A DNA stretch of 64,000 nucleotides, from contig NC_134701.1 in assembly GCF_043290135.1 (NCBI RefSeq), positions 6,230,001-6,294,000 on the forward strand, written 5' to 3'. The stretch comes from Rhipicephalus microplus (taxonomy: Eukaryota > Arthropoda > Arachnida > Ixodida > Ixodidae). Positions 1 to 64,000 of the stretch are shown piece by piece. The notes below the pieces were generated by a model. It searched no databases and was not told where the DNA came from. It saw nothing but the letters and a program-made list of their open reading frames with translations. The translations under genes were made by a program, and so were the position numbers. The number at the start of each line of letters is the position of its first letter. Position 1 is the first letter of the stretch.

Positions 1-39
1 GAAGATATGTTCTGATGGTGGTGAGAGTGGAGCACGACT

Positions 40-113
40 GTCTCCGTGGCGCAATCGGCTAACGCGATCGGCTGTTAACCGAAAGGTTGGAGGTACGAGC
101 CCTCCTGGGAGTG
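40..113 (+). pseudogene. Class B pseudo-tRNA-Asn, CGGCTAACGC D arm
   Basis: This class B form carries AATCGGCTAACGC in the D arm, so 13:22 becomes C.A. The anticodon GTT is intact, the B box is GGTACGAGCCC, and the 3' end is CCTCCTGGGAGTG (usually CCTCCCGGGAGTG). The T stem GGAGG/CCTCC is paired. Copies of this D-arm form are frequent, for example 927, 2553, 3883, 4032, 6835, 7425, 8754, 8903, 37362 and 45179. Confidence 0.68.
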
Positions 114-122
114 GTGTGTTGC

Positions 123-129
123 TTTTTTT
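123..129 (+). terminator. Pol III-type T7 terminator, class B
   Basis: Seven T bases start 10 bases after the end of the body at 40-113, followed by A and four more T. Runs of four or more T on the sense strand end Pol III transcription. This T7-A-T4 arrangement recurs at the same place in nearly every class B unit, so each unit could make a separate pre-tRNA of about 85-90 nt. Confidence 0.7.
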
Positions 130-134
130 ATTTT

Positions 135-187
135 GGGCTGATAGCTTTGAAGATATGTTCTGATGGTGGTGAGAGTGGAGCACGACT
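135..187 (+). other. Inter-unit spacer, representative copy
   Basis: The 53 bp between the T run and the next body begin GGGCTGATAGC and end GAGCACGACT. It is about as conserved among copies as the tRNA body, which shows that body and spacer were amplified together. It contains TGATAG (a WGATAR-type string) and GATGGTGGTGAG. No TATA-like box stands at the usual place about 25-30 bp upstream. Common variants are TTTGAAAATATG, CTCTGAAGAAATG, TATGTAATGATGG and GTGAGTGTGGAGCAGG. Confidence 0.8.
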
Positions 188-261
188 GTCTCCGTGGCGC
201 AATTGGCTAGCGCGATCGGCTGTTAACCGAAAGGTTGGAGGTACGAGCAAACCCGGTGGTG
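188..261 (+). pseudogene. Class A pseudo-tRNA-Asn (CCACCC-GGTGG type)
   Basis: An example of the common class A unit, here with the variant GAGCAAACCCGG. The GTT loop, A box and D stem are intact. T55 is A (GGTACGAGC). In typical class A units the T-stem 3' strand is CCACC while the 5' strand is GGAGG, leaving A51.A63 unpaired; CCACC instead matches the GGTGG directly downstream. The acceptor 3' strand CGGTGGT does not match GTCTCCG. I read class A as non-functional in translation, though its A box and T8 run remain. Confidence 0.72.
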
Positions 262-852: not shown

Positions 853-1369
853 GTGCGGCGCTTGTTTTTCTTTGGGCTGATAGCTTTGAAGATATGTTCT
901 GATGGTGGTGAGAGTGGAGCACGACTGTCTCCGTGGCGCAATCGGCTAACGCGATCGGCTGTTAACCGAAAGGTTGGAGGTACGAGCCCTCCTGGGAGTG
1001 GTGTGTTGCTTTTTTTATTTTGGGCTGATAGCTTTGAAGATATGTTCTGATGGTGGTGAGAGTGGAGCACGACTGTCTCCGTGGCGCAATTGGCTAGCGC
1101 GATCGGCTGTTAACCGAAAGGTTGGAGGTACGAGCAAACCCGGTGGTGGTGCGGCGCTTTTTTTTCTTTGGGCTGATAGCTTTGAAGATATGTTCTGATG
1201 GTGGTGAGAGTGGAGCATGACTGTCTCCATGGCGCAATTGGCTATTCGATCGGCTGTTAACTGAAAGGTTTGAGGTTCGAGCCCTGCCGGGAGTGTTGTG
1301 TTGCTTTTTTTATTTTGGGCTGATAGCAATGAAGATATGTAATGATGGTGGTGAGAGTGGAGCACGACT

Positions 1370-1443
1370 GTCTCTGTGGCGCAATTGGCTAGCGCGATCG
1401 GCGGTTAACCGAAAGGTTGGAGGTTCAAGCCCTCCCGGGAGTG
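1370..1443 (+). pseudogene. U33-to-G pseudo-tRNA-Asn class
   Basis: The loop is CGGTTAA: the invariant U33, needed for the anticodon U-turn, is G at 1403, next to GTT at 1404-1406. The rest is well kept, including D stem, T stem and (as GGTTCAAGCCC here) the B box. The 5' end is usually GTCTCTG. Copies: 1370, 2996, 5358, 5949, 7868, 10673, 12152, 17767, 19392, 21457, 23082, 26034, 27954, 31499, 42380, 53582, 55795, 57121, 58452, 60665, 61991. A U33-to-A form (CAGTTAA) occurs at 39280, 40011, 43268, 43996, 50192 and 50921. Confidence 0.8.
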
Positions 1444-2404
1444 GTGTGTTGCTTTTTTTATTTTGGGCTGATAGCTTTGAAAATATGTTCTGATGGTGGT
1501 GAGTGTGGAGCAGGACTGTCTCAGTGGCGCAATTGGCTAGCGCGATCGGCTGTTAACCGAAAGGTTGGAGGTACGAGCCTACCCGGTGGAGGTGCGGCGC
1601 TTTTTTTTCTTTGGGCTGATAGCTTTGAAGATATGTTCCGATGGTGGTGAGAGTGGAGCACGACTGTCTCCGTGGCGCAATTGGCTAGCGCGATCGGCTG
1701 TTAACCGAGAGGTTGGAAGTTGGAGCCCAACCGGTGGTGGTGCGGCGATTTTTTTTTTCCTTTTGGCTGATAGCTTTGAAAATATGTTCTGATGGTGGTG
1801 AGTGTGGAGCAGGACTGTCTCCGTGAAGCAATTGGCTAGCGCGATCGGCTGTTAACCGAAAGGTTGGAGGTACGAGCCCACCCGGTGCTGGTGCGGCGCT
1901 TTCTTTTCTTTGGGCTGATAGCTTTGAAGATATGTTCTGATGGTGGTGAGAGTGGAGCACGACTGTCCCCGTGGCGCAATAGGCTAGCGCGATCGGCTGT
2001 TAACCGAAAGGTTGGAGGTTTGAGCCCTCCCGGGAGTGGTGTGTTGCTTTTTTTTCTTTGGGCTTATAGTTTTGAAGATATGTTCTCATGGTGGTGAGAG
2101 TGGAGCAGGACTGTCTCCGTGGCGCAATTGGCTAGCGCGATCGGCTGTTAACCGAAATTTGGAGGTACGAGTCCACCCGGTGGTGGTGCGGCGCTTTTTT
2201 TTTGGGCTGATAGCTTTGAAGAAATGTTCTGATGGTGGTGAGAGTGGAGCACATCTGTCTCCGTGGCGCAATTGGCTAGCGCGATCGGCTGTTAACCGAA
2301 AGGTTGGAGGTTTGAGCCCTCCCGGGAGTGGTGTGTTGCTTTTTTTATTTTGGGCTGATAGCTTTGAAACTATGTTCTGATGGTGGTGAGTGTGGAGCAG
2401 GACT

Positions 2405-2478
2405 GTCTCCGTGGCGCAATTGGCTAGCGCGATTGGCTGTAAACCGAAAGGTTGGAGGTACGAGCCTACCCGGTGGAG
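2405..2478 (+). pseudogene. Tyr-type anticodon (GTA) derivative of the Asn unit
   Basis: The loop reads CTGTAAA, giving GTA at 2439-2441, a tyrosine anticodon, by T36-to-A. The B box has the A55 form and the 3' end is CCTACCCGG. Copies with the same anticodon: 2405, 14962, 18800, 22490, 25443, 62722. Position 28-31 varies (TTGG or TCGG), so these six are not all one recent duplication. Confidence 0.8.
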
Positions 2479-3440
2479 GTGCGGCGCTTTTTTTTCTTTG
2501 CGCTGATAGCTTTGAAGATATGTTCTGATGGTGGTGAGAGTGGAGCACGACTGTCTCCGTGGCGCAATCGGCTAACGCGATCGGCTGTTAACCGAAAGGT
2601 TGGAGGTACGAGCCCTCCCGGGAGTGGTGTGTTGCTTTTTTTATTTTGGGCTGATAGCTTTGAAGATATGTTCTGATGGTGGTGAGAGTGGAGCACGACT
2701 GTCTCCGTGGCGCAATTGGCAAGCGCGATCGGCTGTTAACCGAAAGGTTGGAGGTACGAGCCCACCCGGTGGTGGTGCGGCGCTTTTTTTTCTTTGGGCT
2801 GATAGCTTTGAAGATATGTTCTGATGGTGGTGAGAGTGGAGCACGACTGTCTCCATGGCGCAATTGGCTATTCGATCGGCTGTTAACTGAAAGGTTTGAG
2901 GTTCGAGCCCTGCCGGGAGTGTTGTGTTGCTTTTTTTATTTTGGGCTGATAGCTATGAAGATATGTAATGATGGTGGTGAGAGTGGAGCACGACTGTCTC
3001 TGTGGCGCAATTGGCTAGCGCGATCGGCGGTTAACCGAAAGGTTGGAGGTTCGAGCCCTCCCGGGAGTTGTGTGTTTCTTTTTTTATTTTGGGCTGATAG
3101 CTTTGAAAATATGTTCTGATGGTGGTGAGTGTGGAGCAGGACTGTCTCCGTGGCGCAATTGGCTAGCGCGATCGGCTGTTAACCGAAAGGTTGGAGGTAC
3201 GAGCCTACCCGGTGGAGGTGCGGCGCTTTTTTTTCTTTGGGCTGATAGCTTTGAAGATATGTTCTGATGGTGGTGAGAGTGGAGCACGACTGTCTCCGTG
3301 GCGCAATTGGCTAGCGTGATCGGCTGTTAACCGAGAGGTTGGAAGTTGGAGCCCACCCGGTGGTGGTGCGGCGATTTTTTTTCCTTTTGGCTGATAGCTC
3401 TGAAGAAATGTTCTGACGGTGGTGAGAGTGGAGCACGACT

Positions 3441-3513
3441 GTCTCCATGGCGCAATTGGCTATGCGATCGGCTGTCAACTGAAAGGTTGGAGGTTCGAGT
3501 CCCGCGGGAGTGG
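3441..3513 (+). pseudogene. Asp-type anticodon (GTC) derivative of the Asn unit
   Basis: The loop reads CTGTCAA, so 3474-3476 is GTC, an aspartate anticodon, by T36-to-C. The body is 73 nt with GGCTATGCG in the D arm and 5' end GTCTCCA; the B box is intact (GGTTCGAGTCC). Twenty copies share it: 3441, 6394, 8313, 9939, 12597, 15407, 17033, 19837, 20723, 23527, 26479, 28399, 30025, 31944, 33570, 36185, 37953, 41346, 56239, 61109. The rest of the body is Asn-like, so this is a mutated Asn unit that was amplified, not a true tRNA-Asp. Confidence 0.82.
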
Positions 3514-4328
3514 TGTATTGCTTTTTTTTCTTTGGGCTGATAGCTTTGAAGATGTGTTCTGATGGTGGTAAGAGTGGAGCACGACTGTCTCCGTGGCGCA
3601 ATTGGCTAGCGCTATCGGCTGTTAACCGAAAGGTTGGAGGTTCGGGCCCACCTGGTGATGGTGCGGCGCTTTTTTTTCTTTGGGCTGATAGCTTTGAAGA
3701 TATGTTCTGATGGTGGTGAGAGTGGAGCACGACTGTCTCCGTGGCGCAATTGGCTAGCGCGATCGGCTGTTAACCGAAAGGTTGAAGGTACGAGCCCACC
3801 CGGTGGTGGTGCGGCGCTTTTTTTTCTTTGGGCTGATAGCTTTGAAGATATGTTTTGATGGTGGTGAGAGTGGAGCAGGACTGTCTTCGTGGCGCAATCG
3901 GCTAACGCGATCGGCTGTTAACCGAAAGGTTGGAGGTACGAGCCCTCCCGGGAGTGGTGTGTTGCTTTTTTTTATTTTGGGCTGATAGCTTTGAAGATAT
4001 GTTCTGATGGTGGTGAGAGTGGAGCACGACTGTCTCCGTGGCGCAATCGGCTAACGCGATCGGCTGTTAACCGAAAGGTTGGAGGTGCGAGCCCTCCCGG
4101 GAGTGGTGTGTTGCTTTTTTTATTTTGGGCTGATAGCTTAGAAGATTTGTTCTGATGGTGGTGAGAGTGGAGCACGACTGTCTCCGTGGCGCAATTTGCT
4201 AGCGCGATCGGCTGTTAACCGAAAGGTTGGAGGTACGAGCCCACACGGTGGTGGTCCGGCACTTTTTTATTCTTTGGACTGATAGCTCTGAAGAAATGTT
4301 CTGACGGTGGTGAGAGTGGAGCACGACT

Positions 4329-4401
4329 GTCTCCGTGGCGCAATTGGCTATGCGAAATGCTGTTAACCGGAAGGTTGGAGGTTCGAGCCCTCGCGGGAGT
4401 G
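4329..4401 (+). pseudogene. Collapsed anticodon-stem class (GCGAAATG / CCGGA)
   Basis: Bases before the loop read AAATG here and AAAGG in sister copies, while the 3' strand is CCGGA, leaving only one or two pairs in the anticodon stem. GTT and the B box GGTTCGAGCCC are intact. Copies: 4329, 24414, 34450, 38246, 41644, 48131, 54765, 59635. They usually follow a unit with the trailer GTCCGGCAC. Confidence 0.72.
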
Positions 4402-7400
4402 GTGTGTTGCTTTTTTTTGAGGCTGATAGCTTTGAAGATATGTTTTGATGGTGGTGAGAGTGGAGCAGGACTGTCTCCGTGGCGCAATAGGCTAGCGCGA
4501 TCGGCTGTTAACCGAAAGGTTGGAGGTACGAGCCCACCCGGTGTGGTGCGGCGCTTTTTTTCTTTGGGCTCATAGCTCTGAAGAAATGTTCTGACGGTGA
4601 TGAGAGTGGAGCACGACTGTCTCCGTGGCGCATTTGGCTAGCGCGATCGGCTGTTAACTAAAAGGTTGGAGGTACGAGCCCTCCCGGGAGTGGTGTGTTG
4701 CTTTTTTTTCTTTGGGCTGATAGCTTTGAAAATATGTTCTGATGGTGGTGAGTGTTGAGCAGGACTGTCTCCGTGAAGCAATTGGCTAGCGCGATCGGCT
4801 GTTAACCGAAAGGTTGGAGGTACGAGCCCACCCGGTGCTGGTGCGGCGCTTTCTTTTCTTTGGGCTGATAGCTTTGAAGATATGTTCTGATGGTGGTGAG
4901 AGTGGAGCACGACTGTCCCCGTGGCGCAATAGGCTAGCGCGATCGGCTGTTAACCGAAAGGTTGGAGGTTTGAGCCCTCCCGGGAGTGGTGTGTTGCTTT
5001 TTTTTCTTTGGGCTGATAGTTTTGAAGATATGTTCTGATGGTGGTGAGAGTGGAGCACGACTGTCTCCGTGGCGCAATTGGCTAGCGCGATCGGCTGTTA
5101 ACCGAAAGGTTCGAGGTACGAGCCCACCCGGTGGTGGTGCGGCGCTTTTTTTTCTTTGGGCTGATAGCTTTGAAGATATGTTCTGATGGTGGTGAGAGTG
5201 GAGCACGACTGTCTCCATGGCGCAATTGGCTATTCGATCGGCTGTTAACTGAAAGGTTTGAGGTTCGAGCCCTGCCGGGGGTGTTGTGTTGCTTTTTTTA
5301 TTTTGGGCTGATAGCTATGAAGATATGTAATGATGGTGGTGAGAGTGGAGCACGACTGTCTCTGTGGCGCAATTGGCTAGCGCGATCGGCGGTTAACCGA
5401 AAGGTTGGAGGTTCGAGCCCTCCCGGGAGTGGTGTGTTTCTTTTTTTATTTTGGGCTGATAGCTTTGAAAATATGTTCTGATGGTGGTGAGAGTGGAGCA
5501 CGACTTTCTCCGTGGCGCAATCGGCTAACGCGATCGGCTGTTAACCGAAAGGTTGGAGGTACGAGCCCTCCCGGGAGTGGTGTGTTGCTGTTTTTATTTT
5601 GGGCTGATAGCTTTGAAGATATGTTCTGATGGTGGTGAGAGTGGAGCACGACTGTCTCCGTGGCGCAATTGGCTAGCGCGATCGGCTGTTAACCGAAAGG
5701 TTCGAGGTACGAGCCCACCCGGTGGTGGTGCGGCGCTTTTTTTTCTTTGGGCTGATAGCTTTGAAGATATGTTCTGATGGTGGTGAGAGTGGAGCACGAC
5801 TGTCTCCATGGCGCAATTGGCTATTCGATCGGCTGTTAACTGAAAGGTTTGAGGTTCGAGCCCTGCCGGGGGTGTTGTGTTGCTTTTTTTATTTTGGGCT
5901 GATAGCTATGAAGATATGTAATGATGGTGGTGAGAGTGGAGCACGACTGTCTCTGTGGCGCAATTGGCTAGCGCGATCGGCGGTTAACCGAAAGGTTGGA
6001 GGTTCGAGCCCTCCCGGGAGTGGTGTGTTTCTTTTTTTATTTTGGGCTGATAGCTTTGAAAATATGTTCTGATGGTGGTGAGTGTGGAGCAGGACTGTCT
6101 CCGTGGCGCAATTGGCTAGCGCGATCGGCTGTTAACCGAAAGGTTGGAGGTACGAGCCTACCCGGTGGAGGTGCGGCGCTTTTTTTTCTTTGGGCTGATA
6201 GCTTTGAAGATATGTTCTGATGGTGGTGAGAGTGGAGCAAGACTGTCTCCGTGGCGCAATTGGCTAGCGCGATCGGCTGTTAACCGAGAGGTTGGAAGTT
6301 GGAGCCCACCCGGTGGTGGTGCGGCGATTTTTTTTCCTTTTGGCTGATAGCTCTGAAGAAATGTTCTGACGGTGGTGAGAGTGGAGCACGACTGTCTCCA
6401 TGGCGCAATTTGCTATGCGATCGGCTGTCAACTGAAAGGTTGGAGGTTCGAGTCCCGTGGGAGTGGTGTATTGCTTTTTTTTCTTTGGGCTGATAGCTTT
6501 GAAGATGTGTTTTGATGGTGGTAAGAGTGGAGCACGACTGTCTCCGTGGCGCAATTGGCTAGCGCTATCGGCTGTTAACCGAAAGATTGGAGGTTCGGGC
6601 CCACCTGGTGGTGGTGCGGCGCTTTTTTTTCTTTGGGCTGATAGCTTTGAAGATATGTTCTGATGGTGGTGAGAGTGGAGCACGACTGTCTCCGTGGCGC
6701 AATTGGCTAGCGCGATCGGCTGTTAACCGAAAGGTTGAAGGTACGAGCCCACCCGGTGGTGGTGCGGCGCTTTTTTTCTTTGGGCTGATAGCTTTGAAGT
6801 TATGTTCTGATGGTGGTGAGAGTGGAGCAGGACTGTCTCCGTGGCGCAATCGGCTAACTCGGTCGGCTGTTAACCGAAAGGTTGGAGGTACGAGCCCTCC
6901 CGGGAGTGGTGTGTTGCTTTTTTTATTTTGGGCTGATAGCTTTGAAGATATGTTCTGATGGTGGTGAGAGTGGACACGACTGTCTCCGTGGCGCAATCGG
7001 CTAACGCGATCGGCTGTTAACCGAAAGGTTGGAGGTGCGAGCCCTCCCGGGAGTGGTGTGTTGCTTTTTTTATTTTGGGCTGATAGCTTTGAAGATATGT
7101 TCTGATGGTGGTGAGAGTGGAGCACGACTGTCTCCGTGGCGCAATTGGCTAGCGCAATCGGCTGTTAACCGAAAGGTTGGAGGTACGAGCCCAACCGGTG
7201 GTGGTGCGGCGCTTTTTTTTCTTTGGGATGATAGCTTTGAAGATATGTTCTGATGGTGTTGAGAGTGGAGCAGGACTGTCTCCGTGGCGCAATGGGCTAG
7301 CGCTATCGGCTGTTAACTGAAATTTTGGAGGTACGAGCCCACCCGGTGGTGGTGCGGCGCTTGTTTTTTTTGGGCTGATAGCTTTGAAGATATGTTCTGA

Positions 7401-10081: not shown

Positions 10082-10155
10082 GTCTCCGTGGCGCAATTGG
10101 CTAGCGCGATCGGCTGTTAACCGAAAGGTTGGAGGTTCGAGCCCTCCCGAGGGTG
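10082..10155 (+). tRNA. tRNA-Asn-GTT: tRNA-Asn(GUU)-like with intact B box and altered acceptor
   Basis: D arm, anticodon loop with GTT at 10116-10118, T stem and T loop TTCGAGC are as in the best copy. The acceptor 3' strand here is CGAGGGT rather than CGGGAGT, giving G7-C66, C6-G67, a C5.A68 mismatch, T4.G69 wobble, C3-G70 and two wobbles: somewhat better in register than the usual form. Sister copies are at 17176, 20866 and 33713, and the same 3' end is at 36771. Confidence 0.65.
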
Positions 10156-14219: not shown

Positions 14220-14222
14220 ACT

Positions 14223-15023: not shown

Positions 15024-18000
15024 CTCCCGGGAGTGGTGTGTTGCTTTTTTTATTTTGGGCTGATAGCTTTGAAAATATGTTCTGATGGTGGTGAGTGTGG
15101 AGCAGGACTGTCTCCGTGGCGCAATTGGCTAGCGCGATCGGCTGTTAACCGAAAGGTTGGAGGTACGAGCCTACCCGGTGGAGGTGCGGCGCTTTTTTTT
15201 CTTTGGGCTGATAGCTTTGAAGATATGTTCCGATGGTGGTGAGAGTGGAGCACGACTGTCTCCGTGGCGCAATTGGCTAGCGCGATCGGCTGTTAACCGA
15301 GAGGTTGGAAGTTGGAGCCCAACCGGTGGTGGTGCGGCGATTTTTTTTCCTTTTGGCTGATAGCTCTGAAGAAATGTTCTTACGGTGGTGAGAGTGGAGC
15401 ACGACTGTCTCCATGGCGCAATTGGCTATGCGATCGGCTGTCAACTGAAAGGTTGGAGGTTCGAGTCCCGCGGGAGTGGTGTATTGCTTTTTTTTCTTTG
15501 GGCTGATAGCTTTGAAGATGTGTTCTGATGGTGGTAAGAGTGGAGCACGACTGTCTCCGTGGCGCAATTGGCTAGCGCTATCGGCTGTTAACCGAAAGGT
15601 TGGAGGTTCGGGCCCACCTGGTGGTGGTGCAGCGCTTTTTTTTCTTTGGGCTGATAGCTTTGAAGATATGTTCTGATGGTGGTGAGAGTGGAGCACGACT
15701 GTCTCCGTGGCGCAATTGGCTAGCGCGATCGGCTGTTAACCGAAAGGTTGAAGGTACGAGCCCACCAGGTGGTGGTGCGGCGCTTTTTTTCTTTGGGCTG
15801 ATAGCTTTGAAGCTATGTTCTGATGGTGGTGAGAGTGGAGCAGGACTGTCTCCGTGGCGCAATCGGCTAACGCGATCGGCTGTTAACCGAAAGGTTGGAG
15901 GTACGGGCCCTCCCGGGAGTGGTGTGTTGCTTTTTTTTATTTTGGGCTGATAGCTTTGAAGATATGTTCTGATGGTGGTGAGAGTGGAGCACGACTGTCT
16001 CCGTGGCGCAATCGGCTAACGCGATCGGCTGTTAACCGAAAGGTTGGAGGTGCGAGCCCTCCCGGGAGTGGTGTGTTGCTTTTTTTATTTTGGGCTGATA
16101 GCTTTGAAGGAATGTTCTGATGGTGGTGAGAGTGGAGCACGACTGTCTCCGTGGCGCAATTGGCTAGCGCGATCCGCTGTTAACCGAAAGGTTGGAGGTA
16201 CGAGCCCAACCGGTGGTGGTGCGGCGCTTTTTTTTCTTTGGGACGATAGCTTTGAAGATATGTTCTGATGGTGTTGAGAGTGGAGCAGGACTGTCTCCGT
16301 GGCGCAATGGGTTAGCGCGATCAGCTGTTAACAGAAAGGTTGGATGTACGAGCCCACCCGGTGGTGGTGCGGCGCTTGTTTTTCTTTGGGCTGATAGCTT
16401 TGAAGATATATTCTGATGGTGGGAAGAGTGGAGCACGGCTGTCTTCATGGCGCAAGTGGCTAGCGCGATCGGCTGTTAACCGAAAGGTTGGAGGTACGAG
16501 CCCTTCCGGGAGTGGTGCGGCGCTTTTTTTTCTTTGGGCTGATAGCTTTGAAGAAATGTTCTGATGGTGGTGAGAGTTGAGCACGTCTGTCTCCGTGGCG
16601 CAATTGGCTAGCGCGGTTGGCTGTTAACCGAAAGGTTGGAGGCTCGAGCCCTCCCGGGAGTGTTGTGTTGCTTTTTTTATTTTTTGCTGATAGCTTTGAA
16701 AATATGTTTTGATGGTGGTGAGTGTGGAGCAGGACTGTCTCCGTGACGCAATTGGCTAGCTCGATCGGCTGTTAACCGAAAGGTTGGAGGTACGAGCCCA
16801 CCCGGTGGAGGTGCGGCGCTTTTTTTTCTTTGGACTGATAGCTTTGAAGATATGTCCTGATGGTGGTGAGAGTGGAGCACGACTGTCTCCGTGGCGCAAT
16901 TGGCTAGCGCGATCGGCTGTTAACCGACAGGTTGGAGGTTGGAGCCCTCCCGGTGGTGGTGCGGCGATTTGTTTCCTTTTGGCTGATAGCTCTGAAGAAA
17001 TGTTCTGACGGTGGTGAGAGTGGAGCACGACTGCCTCCATGGCGCAATTGGCTATGCGATCGGCTGTCAACTGAAAGGTTGGAGGTTCGAGTCCTCCCGG
17101 GAGTGGTGTATTGCTTTTTTTTGGGCTGATAGCTTTGAAGATATGTTCTCGTGGTGGTGAGAGTGGAGCAGGACTGTCTCCGTGGCGCAATTGGCTAGCG
17201 CGATCGGCTGTTAACCGAAAGGTTGGAGGTTCGAGCCCTCCCGAGGGTGGTGTGTTGCTTTTTTTATTTTGGGCTGATAGCTTTGAAAATATGTTTTGAT
17301 GGTGGTGAGTGTGGAGCAGGACTGTCTCCGTGACGCAATTGGCTAGCGCGATCGGCTGTTAACCGAAAGGTTGGAGGGACGAGCCCTCCCGGGACTGGTG
17401 CGTTGCTTTTTTTTCTTTGGGCTGATAGCTTTACAGATATGTTCTGATGGTGGTAAGAGTGGAGCACGACTGTCTCCGTGGCGCAATTGGCTAGCGCGAT
17501 CTGCTGTTAACCGAAAGGTTGGAGGTACGAGCCCAACCGGTGGTGGTGCGGCGCTTTTTTTTCTTTGGGCTGATAGCTTTGAAGATATGTTCTGATGGTG
17601 GTGAGAGTGGAGCATGACTGTCTCCATGGCGCAATTGGCTATTCGATCGGCTGTTAACTGAAAGGTTTGAGGTTCGAGCCCTGCCGGGAGTGTTGTGTTG
17701 CTTTTTTTATTTTGGGCTGATAGCTTTGAAGATATGTAATGATGGTGGTGAGAGTGGAGCACGACTGTCTCTGTGGCGCAATTGGCTAGCGCGATCGGCG
17801 GTTAACCGAAAGGTTGGAGGTTCAAGCCCTCCCGGGAGTGGTGTGTTGCTTTTTTTATTTTGGGCTGATAGCTTTGAAAATATGTTCTGATGGTGGTGAG
17901 TGTGGAGCAGGACTGTCTCAGTGGCGCAATTGGCTAGCGCGATCGGCTGTTAACCGAAAGGTTGGAGGTACGAGCCTACCCGGTGGAGGTGCGGCGCTTT

Positions 18001-35869: not shown

Positions 35870-35964
35870 GTCTCCGTGGTGCAATTGGCTAGCGCGATCG
35901 GCTGTTAACCGAAAGGTTGGAGGTACGAGCCTACCCGGTGGAGGTGCGAGCCCACCCGGTGGAG
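35870..35964 (+). pseudogene. Unit with internal 21-bp duplication
   Basis: The 3' arm reads GAGCCTACCCGGTGGAGGTGC and then again GAGCCCACCCGGTGGAGGTGC: a direct repeat of 21 bp joining a CCTACCC type to a CCCACCC type. The two halves differ by one base, as if two unit types recombined within GGTGGAGGTGC. The following spacer has also lost four bases (GATATACTGATGG). Confidence 0.78.
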
Positions 35965-37508
35965 GTGCGGCGCTTTTTTTTCTTTGGGCTGATAGCTTTG
36001 AAGATATACTGATGGTGGTGAGAGGGGAGCACTACTGTCTCCGTGGCGCAATTGGCTAGCGCGATCGGCTGTTAACCGAGAGGTTGGAGGTTGGAGCCCT
36101 CCCGGTGGTGGTGCGGCGATTTTTTTCCTTTTGGCTGATAGCTCTGAAGAAATGTTCTGACGGTGGTGAGAGTGGAGCACGACTGTCTCCATGGCGCAAT
36201 TGGCTATGCGATCGGCTGTCAACTGAAAGGTTGGAGGTTCGAGTCCTCCCGGGAGTGGTGTATTGCTTTTTTTTTGGGCTGATAGCTTTGAAGATATGTT
36301 CTGATGGTGGTGAGAGTGGAGCACGACTGTCTCGGTGGCGCAGTTGGCTAGCGCGATCGGCTGTTAACCGAAAGGTTGGAGGTACGAGCCCACCCGGTGG
36401 TGGTGTGGCGCTTTTTTTTCTTTGGGCTGATAGCTGTGAAGAAATGTTCTGACGGTGGTGAGAGTGGAGCACGACTGTCTTCGTGGCGCAATTGGCTATG
36501 CGATCGGCTGTTAACTGAAAGGTTGGAGGTTGGAGCCCTCCCGGGAGTGGTGTGTTGCGTTTTTTTCTTTGGGCTGATAGCTTTGAAGATGTGTTCTCGT
36601 GGTGGTGAGAGTGGAGCAGGACTGTCTCCGTGGCACAATTGGCTAGCGCGATCGGCTGTTAACCGAAATTTGGAGGTACGAGCCCACCCGGTGGTGGTGC
36701 GGCGCTTTTTTTTCTTTGGGCTGATAGCTTTGAAGAAATGTTCTGATGGTGGTGAGAGTGGAGCACGTCTGTCTCCGTGGCTCAATTGGCTAGCGCGGTC
36801 GGATGTTAACCGAAAGGTTGGAGGTTCGAGCCCTCCCGAGGGTGGTGTGTTGCTTTTTTTATTTTGGGCTGATAGCTTTGAAAATATGTTTTGATGGTGG
36901 TGAGTGTGGAGCAGGACTGTCTCCGTGACGCAATTGGCTAGCGCGATCGGCTGTTAACCGAAAGGTTGGAGGGACGAGTCCTCCCGGGACTGGTGCGTTG
37001 CTTTTTTTTCTTTGGGCTGATAGCTTTACAGATATGTTCTGATGGTGGTAAGAGTGGAGCACGACTGTCTCCGTGGCGCAATTGGCTAGCGCGATCGGCT
37101 GTTAACCGAAAGGTTGGAGGTAAGAGCCCAACAGGTGGTGGTGCGGCGCTTTTTTTCTTTGGACTGATAGCTCAGAAGAAATATTCTGACGGTGGTGAGA
37201 GTGGAGCACGACTGTCTCCGTGGCGAAATTGGCTAGCGCGATCGGCTGTTAACCGAAAGGTTGGGGGTAGGAGCCCTCCCAGGAGTGGTGTGTTGCTTTT
37301 TACTCTTTGGGCTGATAGCTTTGAAGATATGTTCTGATGGTGGTGAGAGTGGAGCAGGACTGTCTCCGTGGCGCAATCGGCTAACGCGATCGGCTGTTAA
37401 CCGAAAGGTTGGAGGTACGAGCCCTCCCGGGAGTGGTGTGTTGCTTTTTTTCTTTGGGCTGATAGCTTTGAAGATATGTTCTGATGGTGGTGAGAGTGGA
37501 GCACGACT

Positions 37509-52700: not shown

Positions 52701-53015
52701 ATGGCGCAATTGGCTATTAGATCGGCTGTTAACTGAAAGGTTTGAGGTTCGAGCCCTTCCGGGAGTGGTGCGGCGCTTTTTTTTCTTTGGGCTGATAGCT
52801 TTGAAGAAATGTTCTTATGGTGGTGAGAGTTGAGCACGTCTGTCTCCGTGGCGCAATTGGCTAGCGCGGTCGGCTGTTAACCGAAAGGTTGGAGGTTCGA
52901 GCCCTCCCGGGAGTGGTGTGTTGCTTTTTTTATTTTTTGCTGATAGCTTTGAAAATATGTTTTGATGGTGGTGAGTGTGGAGCAGGACTGTCTCCGTGAC
53001 GCAATTGGCTAGCTC
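49713..53015 (+). repeat. 3.3-kb repeat, partner of 42790-46090
   Basis: It ends at the 52990 unit, whose 3' half switches to the CCTACCCGGTGGAGG type that begins the 4,870-bp duplication. The switch falls inside a body, in the T arm. Confidence 0.87.
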
Positions 53016-54615
53016 GATCGGCTGTTAACCGAAAGGTTGGAGGTACGAGCCTACCCGGTGGAGGTGCGGCGCTTTTTTTTTCTTTAGACTGATAGCTTTG
53101 AAGATATGTTCTGATGGTGGTGAGAGTGGAGCACGACTGTCTCCGTGGCGCCATTGGCTAGCGCTATCGACTGTTAACCGAAAGGTTGGAGGTTTCAGCC
53201 CTCCCGGGAGTGGTGTGTTGCTTTTTTTATTTTGGGCTGATAGCTTTGAAGATATGTTCTGATGGTGGTGAGAGTTGAGCACGACTGTCTCCGTGGCGCA
53301 ATTGGCTAGCGCGATCGGCTGTTAACCAAAGGGTTGTTGGTACGAGCCCTCCCGGGAGTGGTGTGTTGCTTTTTTTATTTTGGGCTGATAGCTTTGAAGA
53401 TATGTTCTGATGGTGGTGAGAGTGGAGCACGACTGTCTCCGTGGCGCAATTGGCTATTCGATCGGCTGTTAACTGAAAGGTTTGAGGTTCGAGCCCTTCC
53501 GGGAGTGTTGTGTTGCTTTTTTTATTTTGGGCTGATAGCTATGAAGATATGTAATGATGGTGGTGAGAGTGGAGCACGACTGTCTCTGTGGCGCAATTGG
53601 CTAGCGCGATCGGCGGTTAACCGAAAGGTTGGAGGTTCGAGCCCTCCCGGGAGTGGTGTGTTGCTTTTTTTATTTTGGGCTGATAGCTTTGAAAATATGT
53701 TCTGATGGTGGTGAGTGTGGAGCAGGACTGTCTCCGTGGCGCAATTGGCTAGCGCGATCGGCTGTTAACCGAAAGGTTGGAGGTACGAGCCTACCCGGTG
53801 GAGGTGCGGCGCTTTTTTTTCTTTGGGCTGATAGCTTTGAAGATATGTTCTGATGGTGGTGAGAGTGGAGCACGACTGTCTCCGTGGCGCAATTGGCTAT
53901 TCGATCGGCTGTTACCTGAAAGGTTTGAGGTTCGAGTCCTTCCGGGAGTGGTGCGGCGCTTTTTTTTCTTTGGGCTGATAGCTTTGAAGAAATGTTCTGA
54001 TGGTGGTGAGAGTTGAGCACGTCTGTCTCCGTGGCGGAATTGGCTAGCGCTTTCGGCTGTTAACCGAAAGGTTGGAGGTTCGAACCCTCCTGGGAGTGGT
54101 GTGTTGCTTTTTTTATTTTTTGCTGATAGCTTTGAAAATATGTTTTGATGGTGGTGAGTGTGGAGCAGGACTGTCTCCGTGACGCAATTGGCTAGCTCGA
54201 TCGGCTGTTAACCGAAAGGTTGGAGGTACGAGCCCACTCGATGGAGGTGCGGCGCTTTTTTTTCTTTGGACTGATAGCTTTGAAGATATGTCCTGATGTT
54301 GGTGAGAGTGGAGCACGACTGTCTCCGTGGCGCAATTGGCTAGCGCGATCGACTGTTAACCGAGAGGTTGGAGGTTCGAGCCCACACGGTGGTGGTCCGG
54401 CACTTTTTTTTTCTTTGGACTGATAGCTCTGAAGAAATGTTCTGACGGTGGTGAGAGTGGAGCACGACTGTCTCCGTGGCGCATTTGGCTAGCGCGATCG
54501 GCTGTTAACCGAAAGGTTGGAGGTACGAGCCCTCCCGGGAGTGGTTTGTTGCTTTTTTTATTTCGGCCTGAAAGCTATGAAGATATGTTCTGATGCTGGT
54601 GAGAGTGGAGCCCGA

Positions 54616-54688
54616 CTCTCCGTGGCGCAATTTGCTAGCGCGATCGGTTGTTAACCGAAAGGTTGGAGGTACGAGCCCACACGGTGGT
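54616..54688 (+). pseudogene. Unit with damaged 5' end (GACTCTCCG)
   Basis: Two bases (GT) are missing at the body start, so the acceptor 5' strand lacks position 1. The D arm reads AATTTGCTAGCG and the anticodon region GATCGGTTGTTAACC, where the loop base 32 is T. The copy at 59486 has the same lesion. The preceding spacer reads GATGCTGGTGAGAGTGGAGCC. Confidence 0.68.
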
Positions 54689-57600
54689 GGTCCAGCACTT
54701 TTTTTTTCTTTGGACTGATAGCTCTGAAGAAATGTTCTGACGGTGGTGAGAGTGGAGCACGACTGTCTCCGTGGCGCAATTGGCTATGCGAAAGGCTGTT
54801 AACCGGAAGGTTGGAGGTTCGAGCCCTCCCGGGAGTGGTGTGTTGCTTTTTTTTGAGGCTGATAGCTTTGAAGATATGTTTTGATGGTGGTGAGAGTGGA
54901 GCAGGACTGTCTCCGTGGCGCAATAGGCTAGCGCGATCGGCTGTTAACCGAAAGGTTGGAGGTACGAGCCCACCCGGTGGTGGTGCGGCGCTTTTTTTCG
55001 TTGGGCTCATAGCTCTGAAGAAATGTTCTGACGGTGGTGAGAGTGGAGCACGACTGTCTCCGTGGCGCATTTGGTTAGCGCGATCGGCTGTTAACTAAAA
55101 GGTTGGAGGTACGAGCCCTCCCGGGAGTGGTGTGTTGCTTTTTTTTCTTTGGGCTGATAGCTTTGAAAATATGTTCTGATGGTGGTGAGTGTGGAGCAGG
55201 ACTGTCTCCGTGAAGCAATTGGCTAGCGCGATCGGCTGTTAACCGAAAGGTTGGAGGTACGAGCCCACCCGGTGCTGGTGCGGCGCTTTCTTTTCTTTGG
55301 GCTGATAGCTTTGAAGATATGTTCTGATGGTGGTGAGAGTGGAGCACGACTGTCCCCGTGGCGCAATAGGCTAGCGCGATCGGCTGTTAACCGAAAGGTT
55401 GGAGGTTTCAGCCCTCCTGGGAGTGGTGTGTTGCTTTTTTTATTTTGGGCTGATAGCTTTGAAGATATGTTCTGATGGTGGTGAGAGTGGAGCACGACTG
55501 TCTCCGTGGCGCAATTGGCTAGCGCGATCGGCTGTTAACCGAAAGGTTGGAGGTACGAGCCCACCCGGTGGTGGTGCGGCGCTTTTTTTTCTTTGAGCTG
55601 ATAGCTTTGAAGATATGTTCTGATGGTGGTGAGAGTGGAGCACGACTGTCTCCGTGGCGCAATTGGCTATTCGATCGGCTGTTAACTGAAAGGTTTGAGG
55701 TTCGAGCCCTTCCGGGAGTGTTGTGTTGCTTTTTTTATTTTGGGCTGATAGCTATGAAGATATGTAATGATGGTGGTGAGAGTGGAGCACGACTGTCTCT
55801 GTGGCGCAATTGGCTAGCGCGATCGGCGGTTAACCGAAAGGTTGGAGGTTCGAGCCCTCCCGGGAGTGGTGTGTTGCTTTTTTTATTTTGGGCTGATAGC
55901 TTTGAAAATATGTTCTGATGGTGGTGAGTGTGGAGCAGGACTGTCTCCGTGGCGCAATTGGCTAGCGCGATCGGCTGTTAACCGAAAGGTTGGAGGTACG
56001 AGCCTACCCGGTGGAGGTGCGGCGCTTTTTTTTCTTTGGGCTGATAGCTTTGAAAAAATGTTCTTATGGTGGTGAGAGTGGAGCACGACTGTCTCCGTGG
56101 CGCAATTGGCTACGCGATCGGCTGTTAACCGAGAGGTTGGAAGTTGGAGCCCACCCGGTGGTGGTGCGGCGATTTTTTTTCCTTTTGGCTGATAGCTCTG
56201 AAGAAAAGTTCTGACGGTGGTGAGAGTGGAGCACGACTGTCTCCATGGCGCAATCGGCCATGCGATCGGCTGTCAACTGAAAGGTTGGAGGTTCGAGTCC
56301 CGCGGGAGTGGTGTATTGCTTTTTTTTCTTTGGGCTGATAGTTTGAAGATGTGTTCTGATGGTGGTAAGAGTTGAGCACGACTGTCTCCGTGGCGCAATT
56401 GGCTATTCGATCGGCTGTTAAATGAAAGGTTGGATGTTCGAGCCCTCCCGAGAGTAGTGTGTTGCTTTTTTTTCTTTGGGCTGATAGCTTCGAAGATATG
56501 TTCTGATGGTGGTGAGAGTGGAGCAGGACTGTCTCCGTGGCGCAATTGGCTGCCGCGATCGGCTGTTAACTGAAAGGTTGGAGGTACGAGCCTACCCGGT
56601 GGAGGTGCGCCGCTTTTTTTCTTTGGGCTGATAGCTTTGAAGATATGTTCTGATGGTGGTGAGAGTGGAGCACGACTGTCTCCGTGGCGCAATCGGCTAA
56701 CGCGATCGGCTGTTAACCGAAAGGTTGGAGGTACGAGCCCTCCCGGGAGTGGTGTGTTGCTTTTTTTATTTTGGGCTGATAGCTTTGAAGATATGTTCTG
56801 ATGGTGGTGAGAGTGGAGCACGACTGTCTCCGTGGCGCAATTGGCTAGCGCGATCGGCTGTTAACCGAAAGGTTGGAGGTACGAGCCCACCCGGTGGTGG
56901 TGCGGCGCTTTTTTTTCTTTGGGCTGATAGCTTTGAAGATATGTTCTGATGGGGGTGAGAGTGGAGCACGACTGTCTCCATGGCGCAATTGGCTATTCGA
57001 TCGGCTGTTAACTGAAAGGTTTGAGGTTCGAGCCCTTCCGGGAGTGTTGTGTTGCTTTTTTTATTTTGGGCTGATAGCTTTGAAGATATGTAATGATGTT
57101 GGTGAGAGTGGAGCACGACTGTCTCTGTGGCGCAATTGGCTAGCGCGATCGGCGGTTAACCGAAAGGTTGGAGGTTCGAGCCCTCCCGGGAGTGGTGTGT
57201 TGCTTTTTTTATTTTGGGCTGATAGCTTTGAAAATATGTTCTGATTGTGGTGAGTGTGGAGCAGGACTGTCTCCGTGGCGCAATTGGCTAGCGCGATCGG
57301 CTGTTAGCCGAAAGGTTGGAGGTACGAGCCTACCCGGTGGAGGTGCGGCGCTTTTTTTTCTTTGGGCTGATAGCTTTGAAGATATGTTCTGATGGTGGTG
57401 AGAGTGTAGCACGACTGTCTCAGTGGCGCAATTTGCTAGCGCGATCGGCTGTTAACCGAAAGGTTGGAGGTACGAGCCCACCTGGTGGTGGTGCGGCGCT
57501 TTTTTTTCTTTGGGCTGATAGCTTTGAAGATATGTTCTGATGGTGGTGAGAGTGGAGCACGACTGTCTCCATGGCGCAATTGGCTATTCGATCGGCTGTT

Positions 57601-60800: not shown

Positions 60801-62750
60801 TGGAGCAGGACTGTCTCCGTGGCGCAATTGGCTAGCGCGATCGGCTGTTAACCGAAAGGTTGGAGGTACGAGCCTACCCGGTGGAGGTGCGGCGCTTTTT
60901 TTTCTTTGGGCTGATAGCTTTGAAAAAATGTTCTTATGGTGGTGAGAGTGGAGCACGACTGTCTCCGTGGCGCAATTGGCTACGCGATCGGCTGTTAACC
61001 GAGAGGTTGGAAGTTGGAGCCCACCCGGTGGTGGTGCGGCGATTTTTTTTCCTTTTGGCTGATAGCTCTGAAGAAAAGTTGTGACGGTGGTGAGAGTGGA
61101 GCACGACTGTCTCCATGGCGCAATCGGCCATGCGATCGGCTGTCAACTGAAAGGTTGGAGGTTCGAGTCCCGCGGGAGTGGTGTATTGCTTTTTTTTCTT
61201 TGGGCTGATAGTTTGAAGATGTGTTCTGATGGTGGTAAGAGTTGAGCACGACTGTCTCCGTGGCGCAATTGGCTATTCGATCGGCTGTTAAATGAAAGGT
61301 TGGATGTTCGAGCCCTCCCGAGAGTAGTGTGTTGCTTTTTTTTCTTTGGGCTGATAGCTTCGAAGATATGTTCTGATGGTGGTGAGAGTGGAGCAGGACT
61401 GTCTCCGTGGCGCAATTGGCTGCCGCGATCGGCTGTTAACTGAAAGGTTGGAGGTACGAGCCTACCCGGTGGAGGTGCGCCGCTTTTTTTCTTTGGGCTG
61501 ATAGCTTTGAAGATATGTTCTGATGGTGGTGAGAGTGGAGCACGACTGTCTCCGTGGCGCAATCGGCTAACGCGATCGGCTGTTAACCGAAAGGTTGGAG
61601 GTACGAGCCCTCCCGGGAGTGGTGTGTTGCTTTTTTTATTTTGGGCTGATAGCTTTGAAGATATGTTCTGATGGTGGTGAGAGTGGAGCACGACTGTCTC
61701 CGTGGCGCAATTGGCTAGCGCGATCGGCTGTTAACCGAAAGGTTGGAGGTACGAGCCCACCCGGTGGTGGTGCGGCGCTTTTTTTTCTTTGGGCTGATAG
61801 CTTTGAAGATATGTTCTGATGGGGGTGAGAGTGGAGCACGACTGTCTCCATGGCGCAATTGGCTATTCGATCGGCTGTTAACTGAAAGGTTTGAGGTTCG
61901 AGCCCTTCCGGGAGTGTTGTGTTGCTTTTTTTATTTTGGGCTGATAGCTTTGAAGATATGTAATGATGTTGGTGAGAGTGGAGCACGACTGTCTCTGTGG
62001 CGCAATTGGCTAGCGCGATCGGCGGTTAACCGAAAGGTTGGAGGTTCGAGCCCTCCCGGGAGTGGTGTGTTGCTTTTTTTATTTTGGGCTGATAGCTTTG
62101 AAAATATGTTCTGATTGTGGTGAGTGTGGAGCAGGACTGTCTCCGTGGCGCAATTGGCTAGCGCGATCGGCTGTTAGCCGAAAGGTTGGAGGTACGAGCC
62201 TACCCGGTGGAGGTGCGGCGCTTTTTTTTCTTTGGGCTGATAGCTTTGAAGATATGTTCTGATGGTGGTGAGAGTGTAGCACGACTGTCTCAGTGGCGCA
62301 ATTTGCTAGCGCGATCGGCTGTTAACCGAAAGGTTGGAGCCCACCTGGTGGTGGTGCGGCGCTTTTTTTTCTTTGGGCTGATAGCTTTGAAGATATGTTC
62401 TGATGGTGGTGAGAGTGGAGCACGACTGTCTCCATGGCGCAATTGGCTATTCGATCGGCTGTTAACTGAAAGGTTTGATGTTCGAGCCCTTCCGGGAGTG
62501 GTGTGTTGCTTTTTTTATTTTGGGCTGATAGCTTTGAAGATATGTAATGATGGTGGTGAGTGTGGAGCACGACTGTCTCCGTGGCGCAATTGGCTAGCGC
62601 GATCGGCTGTTAACCGAAAGGTTGGAGGTTCGAGCCCTTCGGGAGTGGTGTGTTGCTTTTTTTATTTTGGGCTGATAGCTTTGAAAATATGTTCTTATGG
62701 TGGTGAGTGTGGAGCAGGACTGTCTCCGTGGCGCAATTGGCTAGCGCGAT
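57880..62750 (+). repeat. 4,870-bp tandem duplication, right half
   Basis: It differs from the left half by a handful of bases (GTTGTTGG at 53334 against GTTGGAGG at 58204; GAGAGTGG against GAGAATGG at about 59174; TTCTGACGG at 56209 against TTGTGACGG at 61079) and the 7-base deletion in unit 62287. This is the youngest-looking large duplication in the window. Confidence 0.92.
62287..62353 (+). pseudogene. Unit with private 7-base T-arm deletion
   Basis: Where its sister at 57417 reads TTGGAGGTACGAGCCC, this unit reads TTGGAGCCC: seven bases are lost. This is the one length change I can see between the two halves of the 4,870-bp tandem duplication, so it postdates that duplication. Confidence 0.8.
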
Positions 62751-63903
62751 CGGCTGTAAACCGAAAGGTTGGAGGTACGAGCCTACTCAGTGGAGGTGCG
62801 GCGCTTTTTTTTCTTTGGGCTGATAGCTTTGAAGATATGTTCTGATGGTGGTGAGAGTGGAGCACGACTGTCTCCGTGGCGCAATTGGCTAGCGCGATCG
62901 ACTGTTAACCGAGAGGTTGGAGGTACGAGCCCTCCCGGGAGAGGTGTGTGCTTTGTTTTATTTTGGGCTGATAGCTTTGAAGATATGTTCTGATGGTGGT
63001 GAGAGTGGAGCACGACTGTCTCCGTGGCGCAATGGGCTAGCGCGATCGGCTGTTAACCGAAAGGTTGGAGGTACGAGCCCACCCGGTGGTGGTGCGGCGC
63101 TTTTATTTCTTTGGGCTGATAGCTTTGAAGATATGTTCTGATGGTGGTGAGAGTGGAGCACGACTGTCTCCATGGCGCAATTGGCTATTCGATCGGCTGT
63201 TAACTGAAAGGTTTGAGGTTCGAGCCCTTCCGGGAGTGGTGTGTTGCTTTTTTTATTTTGGGCAGATAGCTTTGAAGATATGTAATGATGGTGGTGAGAG
63301 TGGAGCACGACTGTCTCCGTGGCGCAATTGGCTAGCGCGATCGGCTGTTAACCGAAAGGTTGGAGGTACGAGCCCACCCGGTGGTGGTGCGGCGCTTTTT
63401 TTTCTTTGGGCTGATAGCTTTGAAGATATGTTCTGATGGTGGTGAGAGTGGAGCACGACTGTCTCCATGGCGCAATTGGCTATTCGATCGGCTGTTAACT
63501 GAAAGGTTTGAGGTTCGAGCCCTTCCGGGAGTGGTGCGGCGCTTTTTTTTCTTTGGGCCGATAGCTTTGAACAAATGTTCTGATGGTGGTGAGAGTTGAG
63601 CACGTCTGTCTCCGTGGCGCAATTGGCTAGCGCGGTCGGCTGTTAACCGAAAGGTTGGAGGTTCGAGCCCTCCCGGGAGTGGTGTGTTGCTTTTTTTATT
63701 TTTTGCTGATAGCTTTGAAAATATCTTTTGATGTAGGTGAGTGTGGAGCAGGACTGTCTCCGTGACGCAATTGGCTAGCTCGATCGGCTGTTAACCGAAA
63801 GGTTGGAGGTACGAGCCCACCCGGTGTAGGTGCGGCGCTTTTTTTTCTTTGGACTGGTAGCTTTGAAGATATGTCCTGATGGTGGTGAGAGTGGAGCACG
63901 ACT

Positions 63904-63977
63904 GTCTCTGTGGCGCAATTGGCTAGCGCGATCGACTGTTAACCGAGAGGTTGGAGGTTCGAGCCCACCCAGTGGTG
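63904..63977 (+). pseudogene. Last complete unit in the window
   Basis: The 5' end is GTCTCTG, the stem is ATCGA/CCGAG so 31:39 is A.C, and GTT is present. The B box GGTTCGAGCCC is intact and the 3' end is CCACCCAGTGG. Its T7 run at 63987-63993 is followed by CCTTTGG, and the window ends in the next spacer, so the array continues to the right. Confidence 0.7.
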
Positions 63978-64000
63978 GTGCGGCGATTTTTTTCCTTTGG

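What the first reader, a model, noticed from the sequence alone, without database searches (positions are those of the whole stretch)
1..64000. A tRNA-Asn-derived satellite filling at least 64 kb, every unit with Pol III promoter and terminator remnants
434 hand-counted copies of a ~148-bp unit, all on one strand, with nothing else in between. tRNA gene clusters and tRNA-derived SINEs are known, but an uninterrupted satellite made of single-isotype tRNA units with a T run in each is unusual. If transcribed it would be a very large source of short Pol III RNAs.
Basis: partly seen in the sequence, partly recalled or inferred. Interest (0 to 1): 0.88.

Follow-up and report, generated by a model that had tools for sequence, protein, structure and literature searches.

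The report
Megabase satellite from tRNA-Asn gene
The window lies in a repeat block, sampled over more than four million bases, of head-to-tail 148-base copies of an asparagine tRNA sequence, and the genome (probably that of a hard tick) holds more than 300,000 copies of the unit's spacer on several chromosomes; the tRNA copies in the window are decayed and likely serve as structural repeat DNA rather than making working tRNA.

Summary
Observation confirmed. The window is wall-to-wall 148-bp units: 435 by alignment, 432 whole, one strand. The tRNA-Asn likeness is real: ARAGORN 237 calls, 221 Asn; 267 Rfam matches, best 51.5 bits.

The scale is larger than reported. On scaffold C2 the array is present, same strand, in 25 of 25 samples from 5.2 to 9.9 Mb, and on the other strand in 8 of 8 from 10.2 to 10.55 Mb. 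A 44-base spacer probe (up to 3 mismatches) has 376,056 matches in the genome, about 56 Mb or 1.7%. Capped lists place the family on C2, C3, C4, C6, C8, C9, C12 and C13; C1 shows one match, an intact tRNA-Asn gene of 67.7 bits.

'Every unit with Pol III promoter' is only partly right: T run in 429 of 432, A box in 365, canonical B box in 112; no unit forms all 21 stem pairs. Averaged over its length, the tRNA part is not less variable than the spacer, though some tRNA segments are. Best reading: a tRNA gene turned satellite. A Pol III or TFIIIC role is unlikely, not excluded.

The parts
1..64000 (+). Part of a satellite array of 148-bp tRNA-Asn-derived units; the window is G000:C2:6230001-6294000
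   Evidence: array present in 25 of 25 samples on C2 from 5.2 to 9.9 Mb
40..187 (+). First whole unit (148 bp), given as example
   Evidence: alignment; read
40..113 (+). tRNA-Asn-like part of that unit (39.0 bits to RF00005); anticodon GTT at 74-76
47..57 (+). A-box-like element TGGCGCAATCG of the first unit
   Evidence: sequence; consensus present in 365 of 432 units
92..101 (+). B-box position of the first unit, GGTACGAGCC (T55 changed to A), the commonest form
   Evidence: sequence; 184 of 432 units have exactly this form, canonical B box in 112 of 432
123..129 (+). T7 run behind the tRNA part of the first unit, terminator-like
   Evidence: sequence; T run of 4 or more in 429 of 432 units
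10082..10155 (+). Best-scoring tRNA-like copy (51.5 bits; ties at 17176, 20866, 33713), canonical B box
52990..57416 (+). Block of 30 units repeated 4,869 bp further on at 99.8% mean unit identity: recent multi-unit amplification
1075..5062 (+). Block of 27 units repeated 20,087 bp further on at 99.5% mean unit identity
35479..35573 (+). Deleted unit of 95 bp
35870..36036 (+). Unit of 167 bp with an internal 21-bp duplication

Best explanation
This is a satellite DNA whose 148-bp unit carries a tRNA-Asn(GTT) sequence with a T run behind it, and which most likely arose by head-to-tail amplification of one tRNA-Asn gene with its terminator, likely grew by unequal exchange of multi-unit blocks, probably moved between chromosomes, and likely no longer makes working tRNA. 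Shown: unit structure, tRNA likeness, near-identical multi-unit blocks, presence over megabases of C2 at every sampled point, presence on several scaffolds with sampled units about as alike between as within scaffolds, an array edge on C8 whose consensus is nearer to the gene, and loss of stem pairs and B box in window units. Inferred: that the edge form is older, that the array is weakly transcribed heterochromatin, and that it is kept by repeat turnover (with or without a structural role) and not by selection for tRNA or a Pol III product.
For: Units and blocks. tRNA identity. Intact gene in the same genome: C1:249,482,145-249,482,218, 67.7 bits, 21 of 21 stem pairs, T8 behind it; window units match it at 90.5% on average over tRNA columns 8-66. 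Decay: 13 to 19 of 21 pairs per unit, none above 19, in 432 units. Mean diversity, tRNA against spacer: type A 0.072 and 0.062, type B 0.097 and 0.078, C8 edge 0.161 and 0.122. C8 edge: T28 in 23 of 24 units and B box in 17 of 24 (0.71), against 0 of 431 and 0.26 in the window. Consensus of tRNA columns 8-66 differs from the gene at 1 place in the edge form, 2 in type B, 4 in type A (read from the lines). Edge to type A: 6 changes in the 74 tRNA columns, 7 in the other 74. Extent and number. Between scaffolds: mean identity within blocks 0.859-0.902, between blocks 0.853-0.896, the C8 edge (4 units) apart.
Against: T runs (429 of 432) and A box (365 of 432) are kept, as a Pol III unit would have; recent common descent explains this too and was not separated. 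Some tRNA segments vary less than the spacer: in type A the 5' acceptor strand 0.031, A box 0.057 and anticodon arm 0.046 against spacer 0.062; in type B the A box 0.062 against 0.078; anticodon columns over all units 0.043 against 0.075. Unit by unit the C8 edge copies are not more intact than the window (mean pairs 17.08 against 16.99, acceptor pairs 5.12 against 5.60, identity to the gene 0.896 against 0.905): only their consensus, T28 and B box are nearer. The canonical B box is commoner elsewhere (147 of 369; 0.10 to 0.79 by locus) than in this window. The flanks of the C1 gene do not resemble the spacer, so the source gene is not found. No expression, chromatin or cytological data.
Confidence: 0.75

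Rival explanations
1. The array is an active Pol III domain: a fraction of units with intact A box, B box and T run is transcribed into short tRNA-like RNAs or tRNA fragments, or binds TFIIIC as chromatin anchor or boundary.
For: A box, B box and T run of 4 or more together in 100 of 432 window units; B box in 147 of 369 units sampled elsewhere; T runs almost universal; A-box columns in types A and B and anticodon columns over all units vary less than the spacer.
Against: 218 of 432 window units carry T55A in the B box; stem pairs are lost; B-box columns vary more than the spacer in types A and B (0.130 and 0.118 against 0.062 and 0.078) and about as much in the edge set (0.118 against 0.122).
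Confidence: 0.13
2. It is the centromeric satellite of the species, with the near-nucleosome unit length of 148 bp as the functional feature and the tRNA origin incidental. (Not exclusive with the best explanation.)
For: Unit length near 147 bp, megabase array with an orientation switch, one or two regions per scaffold in the lists.
Against: C1 (303 Mb) shows no array in any of five lists. C5 and C7 are missing from the lists, C10 and C11 from that; these lists are capped and use rare variants. C4, C9 and C12 show two regions each. CENP-A placement untested; cattle-tick chromosomes have been described as holocentric (recalled).
Confidence: 0.2
3. The units descend from a tRNA-Asn-headed SINE, not from a tRNA gene directly.
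For: Most tRNA-derived repeats of animals are SINEs (recalled), and SINE-derived satellites are described in squamates (abstract of PMC10702118).
Against: C1 lists a single exact match to the 25-base tRNA probe, the intact gene, and no exact match to the 44-base spacer probe. The unit has a T run shortly after the tRNA and no LINE-like or A-rich tail was seen. Divergent dispersed copies were not searched for.
Confidence: 0.08
4. Assembly artefact: a small cluster of tRNA genes expanded by mis-assembly.
For: Not checked against raw reads.
Against: The 432 whole units include about 250 distinct sequences (254, 250); the 25 longest repeated runs are 98.1-99.9% and not 100% identical; arrays occur in both orientations on several scaffolds and end in other sequence; no N in the array samples.
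Confidence: 0.03

Closest known systems
RMR-1 tandem repeat of the cattle tick Rhipicephalus microplus (Hill et al. 2009, recalled; paper not held)
   Same: Recalled as a repeat unit of about 149 bp in subtelomeric positions of most autosomes and not on the X; same size class, similar placement.
   Different: Its sequence could not be read here, so identity is untested; I do not recall a tRNA origin from that paper. If it is the same family, the satellite itself is known and only its origin and scale are new.
SINE-derived satellites of squamate reptiles (PMC10702118, abstract read)
   Same: Tandem repeats that grew from short interspersed elements and are likely linked to subtelomeric regions.
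   Different: Parts of SINEs, and according to the abstract not amplified to the degree of typical satellites; here a whole tRNA sequence with T run, in more than 300,000 copies by the spacer probe.
Complex satellites with tRNA-derived parts in Harttia catfish (PMC11955569, two passages read)
   Same: tRNA gene pieces inside satellite units.
   Different: There most are complex units with SINE, LINE and tRNA parts mixed; here tRNA, T run and a 52-bp spacer are the whole unit.
Tandem tRNA gene clusters (recalled: Entamoeba tRNA arrays, Arabidopsis Tyr/Ser arrays, Xenopus tDNA)
   Same: Repeated tRNA units in tandem.
   Different: Those encode tRNAs in far smaller numbers (recalled); here no copy in the window pairs fully.
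Expanded tRNA gene sets reported for ticks (PMC13105059, passages read)
   Same: Probably the same broad host group; large excess of tRNA-like loci.
   Different: That preprint reports a uniform increase over isotypes after a score cut of 50 and a filter against tRNA-derived repeats; the present family is one isotype, and only 13 of its 267 Rfam matches exceed 50 bits (another scoring program).

Membership tests
Satellite DNA | Long head-to-tail array of a short unit | tested here: met
   435 units in 64 kb; 25 of 25 samples over 4.7 Mb of C2 in one orientation
Satellite DNA | Concerted evolution and multi-unit block amplification | tested here: met
   97 runs of 5 or more near-identical units, the longest 30 units at 99.8%; within- and between-scaffold identity alike in the sample
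tRNA-Asn gene | tRNA fold recognised by a covariance model, GTT anticodon | tested here: met
   267 Rfam matches; GTT in 403 of 432
tRNA-Asn gene | Fully paired cloverleaf | tested here: not met
   0 of 432 units form 21 of 21 pairs, best 19; the C1 gene forms 21
tRNA-Asn gene | Purifying selection on the tRNA part | tested here: not met
   whole tRNA part as variable as or more variable than the spacer in three unit sets, though single segments (A box, anticodon arm in type A) are less variable
Pol III transcription unit | A box, B box and T-run terminator | tested here: inconclusive
   all three in 100 of 432 units; higher B-box share in most other samples
Pol III transcription unit | Transcript or Pol III occupancy | not testable with these tools
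   no expression or ChIP data
tRNA-derived SINE | Dispersed single copies with tRNA head, body and tail | tested here: inconclusive
   one exact 25-base match listed on 303-Mb C1, which is an intact tRNA gene; divergent copies and other scaffolds not searched
RMR-1 (cattle tick) | Sequence identity of the repeat unit | not tested
   paper not held; no tick sequence collection here
RMR-1 (cattle tick) | Unit near 149 bp at chromosome ends of most autosomes (recalled) | tested here: inconclusive
   148 bp; near ends on C2, C3, C6 but interior on C4 and C8
Centromeric satellite | Present on every chromosome | tested here: inconclusive
   no array on C1 in five capped lists; C5 and C7 absent from lists 34 and 44, C10 and C11 from list 44 (rare variants)
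Centromeric satellite | CENP-A chromatin | not testable with these tools
   no data

The most novel reading that the evidence does not exclude
A tRNA-Asn gene became one of the main structural DNAs of a genome: several hundred thousand tRNA-shaped units form megabase domains that still bind TFIIIC, anchor and cluster chromosome regions, and feed a pool of tRNA-Asn-like fragments, so that a translation gene has been turned into chromosome architecture.
Probability: 0.12. Interest if true: 0.85.

Novelty: new variant of a known kind. Interest (0 to 1): 0.6.

Why it matters
It offers, in one genome, an intact tRNA gene, a gene-like array edge and a homogenised megabase satellite of the same sequence, which makes the question of how satellites are born testable. 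It also warns that tRNA counts in such genomes can be swamped by one decayed family unless filtered, and it is a natural test of whether Pol III promoters can persist in a satellite.

Tried and rejected
A DNA search of the own genome with the whole unit returned nothing; the tool says it skips very common words, so exact patterns were used. Species: no name was obtained. The COX1 family search found only a short nuclear insert on C7; a protein search with a retrotransposon frame from the start of C2 listed 120 relatives, the best 73% identical, with no tick named among those that carry names. An exact 25-base spacer pattern had 0 matches in genome contigs and viral contigs; the 25-base tRNA pattern hit one cyanobacterium, a tRNA-Asn-like sequence without the satellite spacer in the 241 bases read. 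WW-dinucleotide periods of the consensus: strongest at 4.35 and 5.48 bp, 9.86 bp fourth, so no dominant nucleosome-type signal.

Literature, all ten searches: tRNA-derived or tick satellites, tRNA gene arrays, RMR-1; tick repeats, holocentric or subtelomeric repeats, tick genomes. Lists show titles and abstract starts; one search listed 15 of 33 and one search listed 20 of 42. None of the listed papers announces a tRNA-Asn satellite in a tick. Seen: abstract of PMC10702118; passages of PMC11955569, PMC7417564, PMC12211944, PMC13105059, PMC2893602, PMC12341941; PMC7417564, PMC12211944 and PMC12341941 gave nothing on this repeat. The 2009 paper on RMR-1 is not held and is recalled only.

Rejected: working tRNA cluster, assembly artefact; SINE as direct source is thought unlikely (see rivals). 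Not done: RF00005 search of the whole genome and a further spread pattern (tool busy), raw-read depth, expression.

Limits of counts. Lists of pattern places are capped at 100, one search's list looks thinned by stretch, and one search's ends in C9, so absence of a scaffold from a list is weak evidence; C1 comes first in the order and is the firmest case. In one search, 30 satellite-bearing samples were used; L008-L016, L042-L070, L071 and L081 were left out, and units with more than 15 gaps, more than 10 inserted bases or identity of 70% or less were dropped; the window entered as every twelfth unit (36). In some searches units with more than 15 gaps or 12 inserted bases were dropped (431 window units kept). 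Confidence in the best explanation was lowered from 0.77 to 0.75 on checking, because the C8 edge units are gene-like in consensus, T28 and B box but not in mean pairing.
Full report
What was checked. The window is filled from end to end by a 148-bp unit. A wraparound alignment gives 435 units, 432 whole, mean identity 92.8% to the unit, with no minus-strand match at the same threshold; TRF sees the same array. ARAGORN tRNAs, 221 of them Asn, and Rfam gives 267 matches, best 51.5 bits against a gathering score of 29 (the 150 listed are all RF00005). The anticodon columns read GTT in 403 of 432 units. The tRNA identity is therefore not chance.

Anatomy of a unit. Columns 1-74 are the tRNA, columns 84-91 the T run, columns 97-148 a spacer; an exact 25-base spacer pattern has no match in the prokaryote and viral collections. 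Two types share the array about equally (205 and 209 of 431): type B with the tRNA-like B box GGTTCGAGCC and 3' acceptor CGGGAGT, type A with GGTACGAGCC and CGGTGGT. Neither consensus has a fully paired acceptor: B mismatches at 3-71, A at 4-70; both have lost the top anticodon-stem pair through A28. T run of 4 or more: 429 of 432; A box: 365; canonical B box: 112; A and B box together: 100, all of which also have the T run.

Order in the array. A and B units are mixed without a fixed period. Of 97 runs of 5 or more units that recur at 97% or more, the 25 longest span 11 to 30 units, at lags of 13 to 160 units and 98.1-99.9% identity; the longest exact repeat is 1,589 bp. This is the mark of recent unequal exchange or block duplication (inference).

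Scale. The own genome is held (3.26 Gb, 1,202 contigs). The window is C2:6,230,001-6,294,000. Two-kilobase samples show the array on the + strand in 25 of 25 samples from 5.2 to 9.9 Mb, a second satellite of about 130 bp in 5 of 5 samples from 9.95 to 10.15 Mb, and the tRNA-Asn array on the - strand in 8 of 8 samples from 10.2 to 10.55 Mb; it is still there at 10.570 Mb and gone at 10.585 Mb. Between the sampled points continuity is inferred, except for the window and 5.108-5.134 Mb, which were read almost throughout. The left edge, at about C2:5,109,56x, abuts DNA with TTAGG-type repeats, which is also rich in samples further left. A 25-base tRNA probe has 106,258 exact matches in the genome and 186 in the window; a 44-base spacer probe with up to 3 mismatches has 376,056 in the genome and 359 in the window, with 0 for the reversed control. 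Times 148 bp that is about 56 Mb (1.7%); scaled by the window's hit rate the two probes give about 248,000 and 454,000 units, 37 and 67 Mb. Rare variants place the family on C2, C3, C4 (two regions), C6, C8, C9 (two regions), C12 (two regions) and C13. On C1 one match is listed.

The intact gene. That C1 match is a proper tRNA-Asn gene: 67.7 bits, all 21 stem pairs, T8 behind it. Window units match it at 90.5% on average over tRNA columns 8-66. It shows what an intact tRNA-Asn of this genome looks like; it is not shown to be the source gene, since its flanks do not resemble the spacer.

Decay. No unit forms more than 19 of 21 pairs. Mean diversity of the whole tRNA part is above that of the spacer in type A (0.072, 0.062), type B (0.097, 0.078) and edge units (0.161, 0.122); over all units together it is 0.109 against 0.075, not significant column by column (Mann-Whitney p = 0.064). 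Against this, single segments are quieter than the spacer: in type A the 5' acceptor strand, A box and anticodon arm, in type B the A box, and over all units the anticodon. Among 250 distinct units, one-sided changes in the D, anticodon and T stems kept a pair in 154 cells and broke it in 355; two-sided changes kept pairing in 4; the T-stem count includes the A/B difference at column 64.

An edge nearer to the gene. Units near 125.0 Mb on C8, beside a LINE-like frame, keep T28 in 23 of 24 and the B box in 17 of 24, against 0 of 431 and 0.26 in the window, and their consensus ends the acceptor in C73. Over columns 8-66 the edge consensus differs from the C1 gene at 1 place, type B at 2, type A at 4 (read). 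This suggests the order gene, edge form, type B, type A: T28A and C73T first, then T56A (the B-box T55), T64A and acceptor changes. Unit by unit, however, the edge copies are worn: mean pairs 17.08 against 16.99 in the window, acceptor pairs 5.12 against 5.60, identity to the gene 0.896 against 0.905. They look like an old, no longer homogenised margin, which is inference. From edge to type A there are 6 changes in the tRNA half and 7 outside it.

Units of different scaffolds. Mean identity is 0.859-0.902 within blocks and 0.853-0.896 between them, except for the C8 edge (4 units, 0.810-0.830 to the others), in a sample of 369 units and 36 from the window. No scaffold-specific family shows; exchange between chromosomes is inferred.

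How it likely works. A tRNA-Asn gene with its T run was duplicated head to tail; the array grew by unequal exchange; blocks moved between chromosomes; selection on the tRNA was gone. The A box and T run persist in most copies, which could be descent alone. A structural role (heterochromatin near chromosome ends, perhaps near centromeres) is plausible by position, as C2, C3 and C6 carry it near an end, but C4 and C8 carry it inside. That step is untested.

Against this reading. The B box is commoner in most other samples than in this window (147 of 369 units; 0.10 to 0.79 by locus), and A-box and anticodon columns are quiet. A minority of transcribed or TFIIIC-bound units is therefore possible; TFIIIC binding needs no full tRNA fold (established knowledge).

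Comparison with the known. The nearest named candidate, recalled and not read, is RMR-1 of the cattle tick, about 149 bp and subtelomeric on most autosomes. If identical, the repeat is known and its tRNA nature is the new part. SINE-derived satellites in squamates (abstract) and tRNA pieces in catfish satellites (passages) show the general kind. A tick preprint reports a uniform rise of tRNA genes after a score cut of 50 (passages); only 13 of 267 Rfam matches here exceed 50 bits (a different scoring program). A ~95-bp repeat estimated at more than a million copies in Ixodes scapularis is mentioned in PMC2893602 (passage).

Species. Not named by any search. TTAGG telomeres, a nuclear COX1 insert that is open in pieces under the invertebrate mitochondrial code, and ten scaffolds of 110-303 Mb plus one of 513 Mb fit a hard tick with ten autosomes and a large X (recalled karyotype).

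Verdict. Observation right and understated; interpretation half right. New variant of a known kind, interest 0.6.

Noticed in passing
L072-L076 (G000:C2 9.95-10.15 Mb): A second satellite of about 130 bp (dimer 267), rich in GGACGCA/GACAGACAGACT, lies between the two oppositely oriented tRNA-Asn blocks and itself switches strand between 10.00 and 10.05 Mb.
   Followed up: partly
G000:C2:10015129-10015157 (-): A gene-like (T28) tRNA-Asn match lies inside the stretch sampled as second satellite; its surroundings were not read.
   Followed up: no
L002-L004, L022-L026, L042 (G000:C2 1.0-5.1 Mb), L092, L106: Repeats bearing TTAGG-type stretches fill samples to the left of the array and switch strand between 3.0 and 4.5 Mb; similar DNA lies near the start of C6.
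   Followed up: no
G000:C4 174.6-175.4 Mb: The list for the T28 (gene-like) form is dense here, so this may be another gene-like region of the satellite besides C8 near 125.0 Mb.
   Followed up: no
L108 about 620-1711: A LINE-like reverse transcriptase frame adjoins the edge units on C8.
   Followed up: no
L122 1290-1790 (G000:C7:122.89 Mb): A nuclear insert of the 3' part of mitochondrial COX1, split over two frames.
   Followed up: partly
L111 2924-3047 (Baaleninema simplex PCC 7105): A tRNA-Asn-like sequence with, by eye, an extra stretch of roughly 40-50 bases between D arm and anticodon arm; ARAGORN does not call it.
   Followed up: no
L081 about 750-1400 (G000:C2:10.45 Mb): A stretch without unit words inside the minus-strand array, perhaps an insertion.
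   Followed up: no
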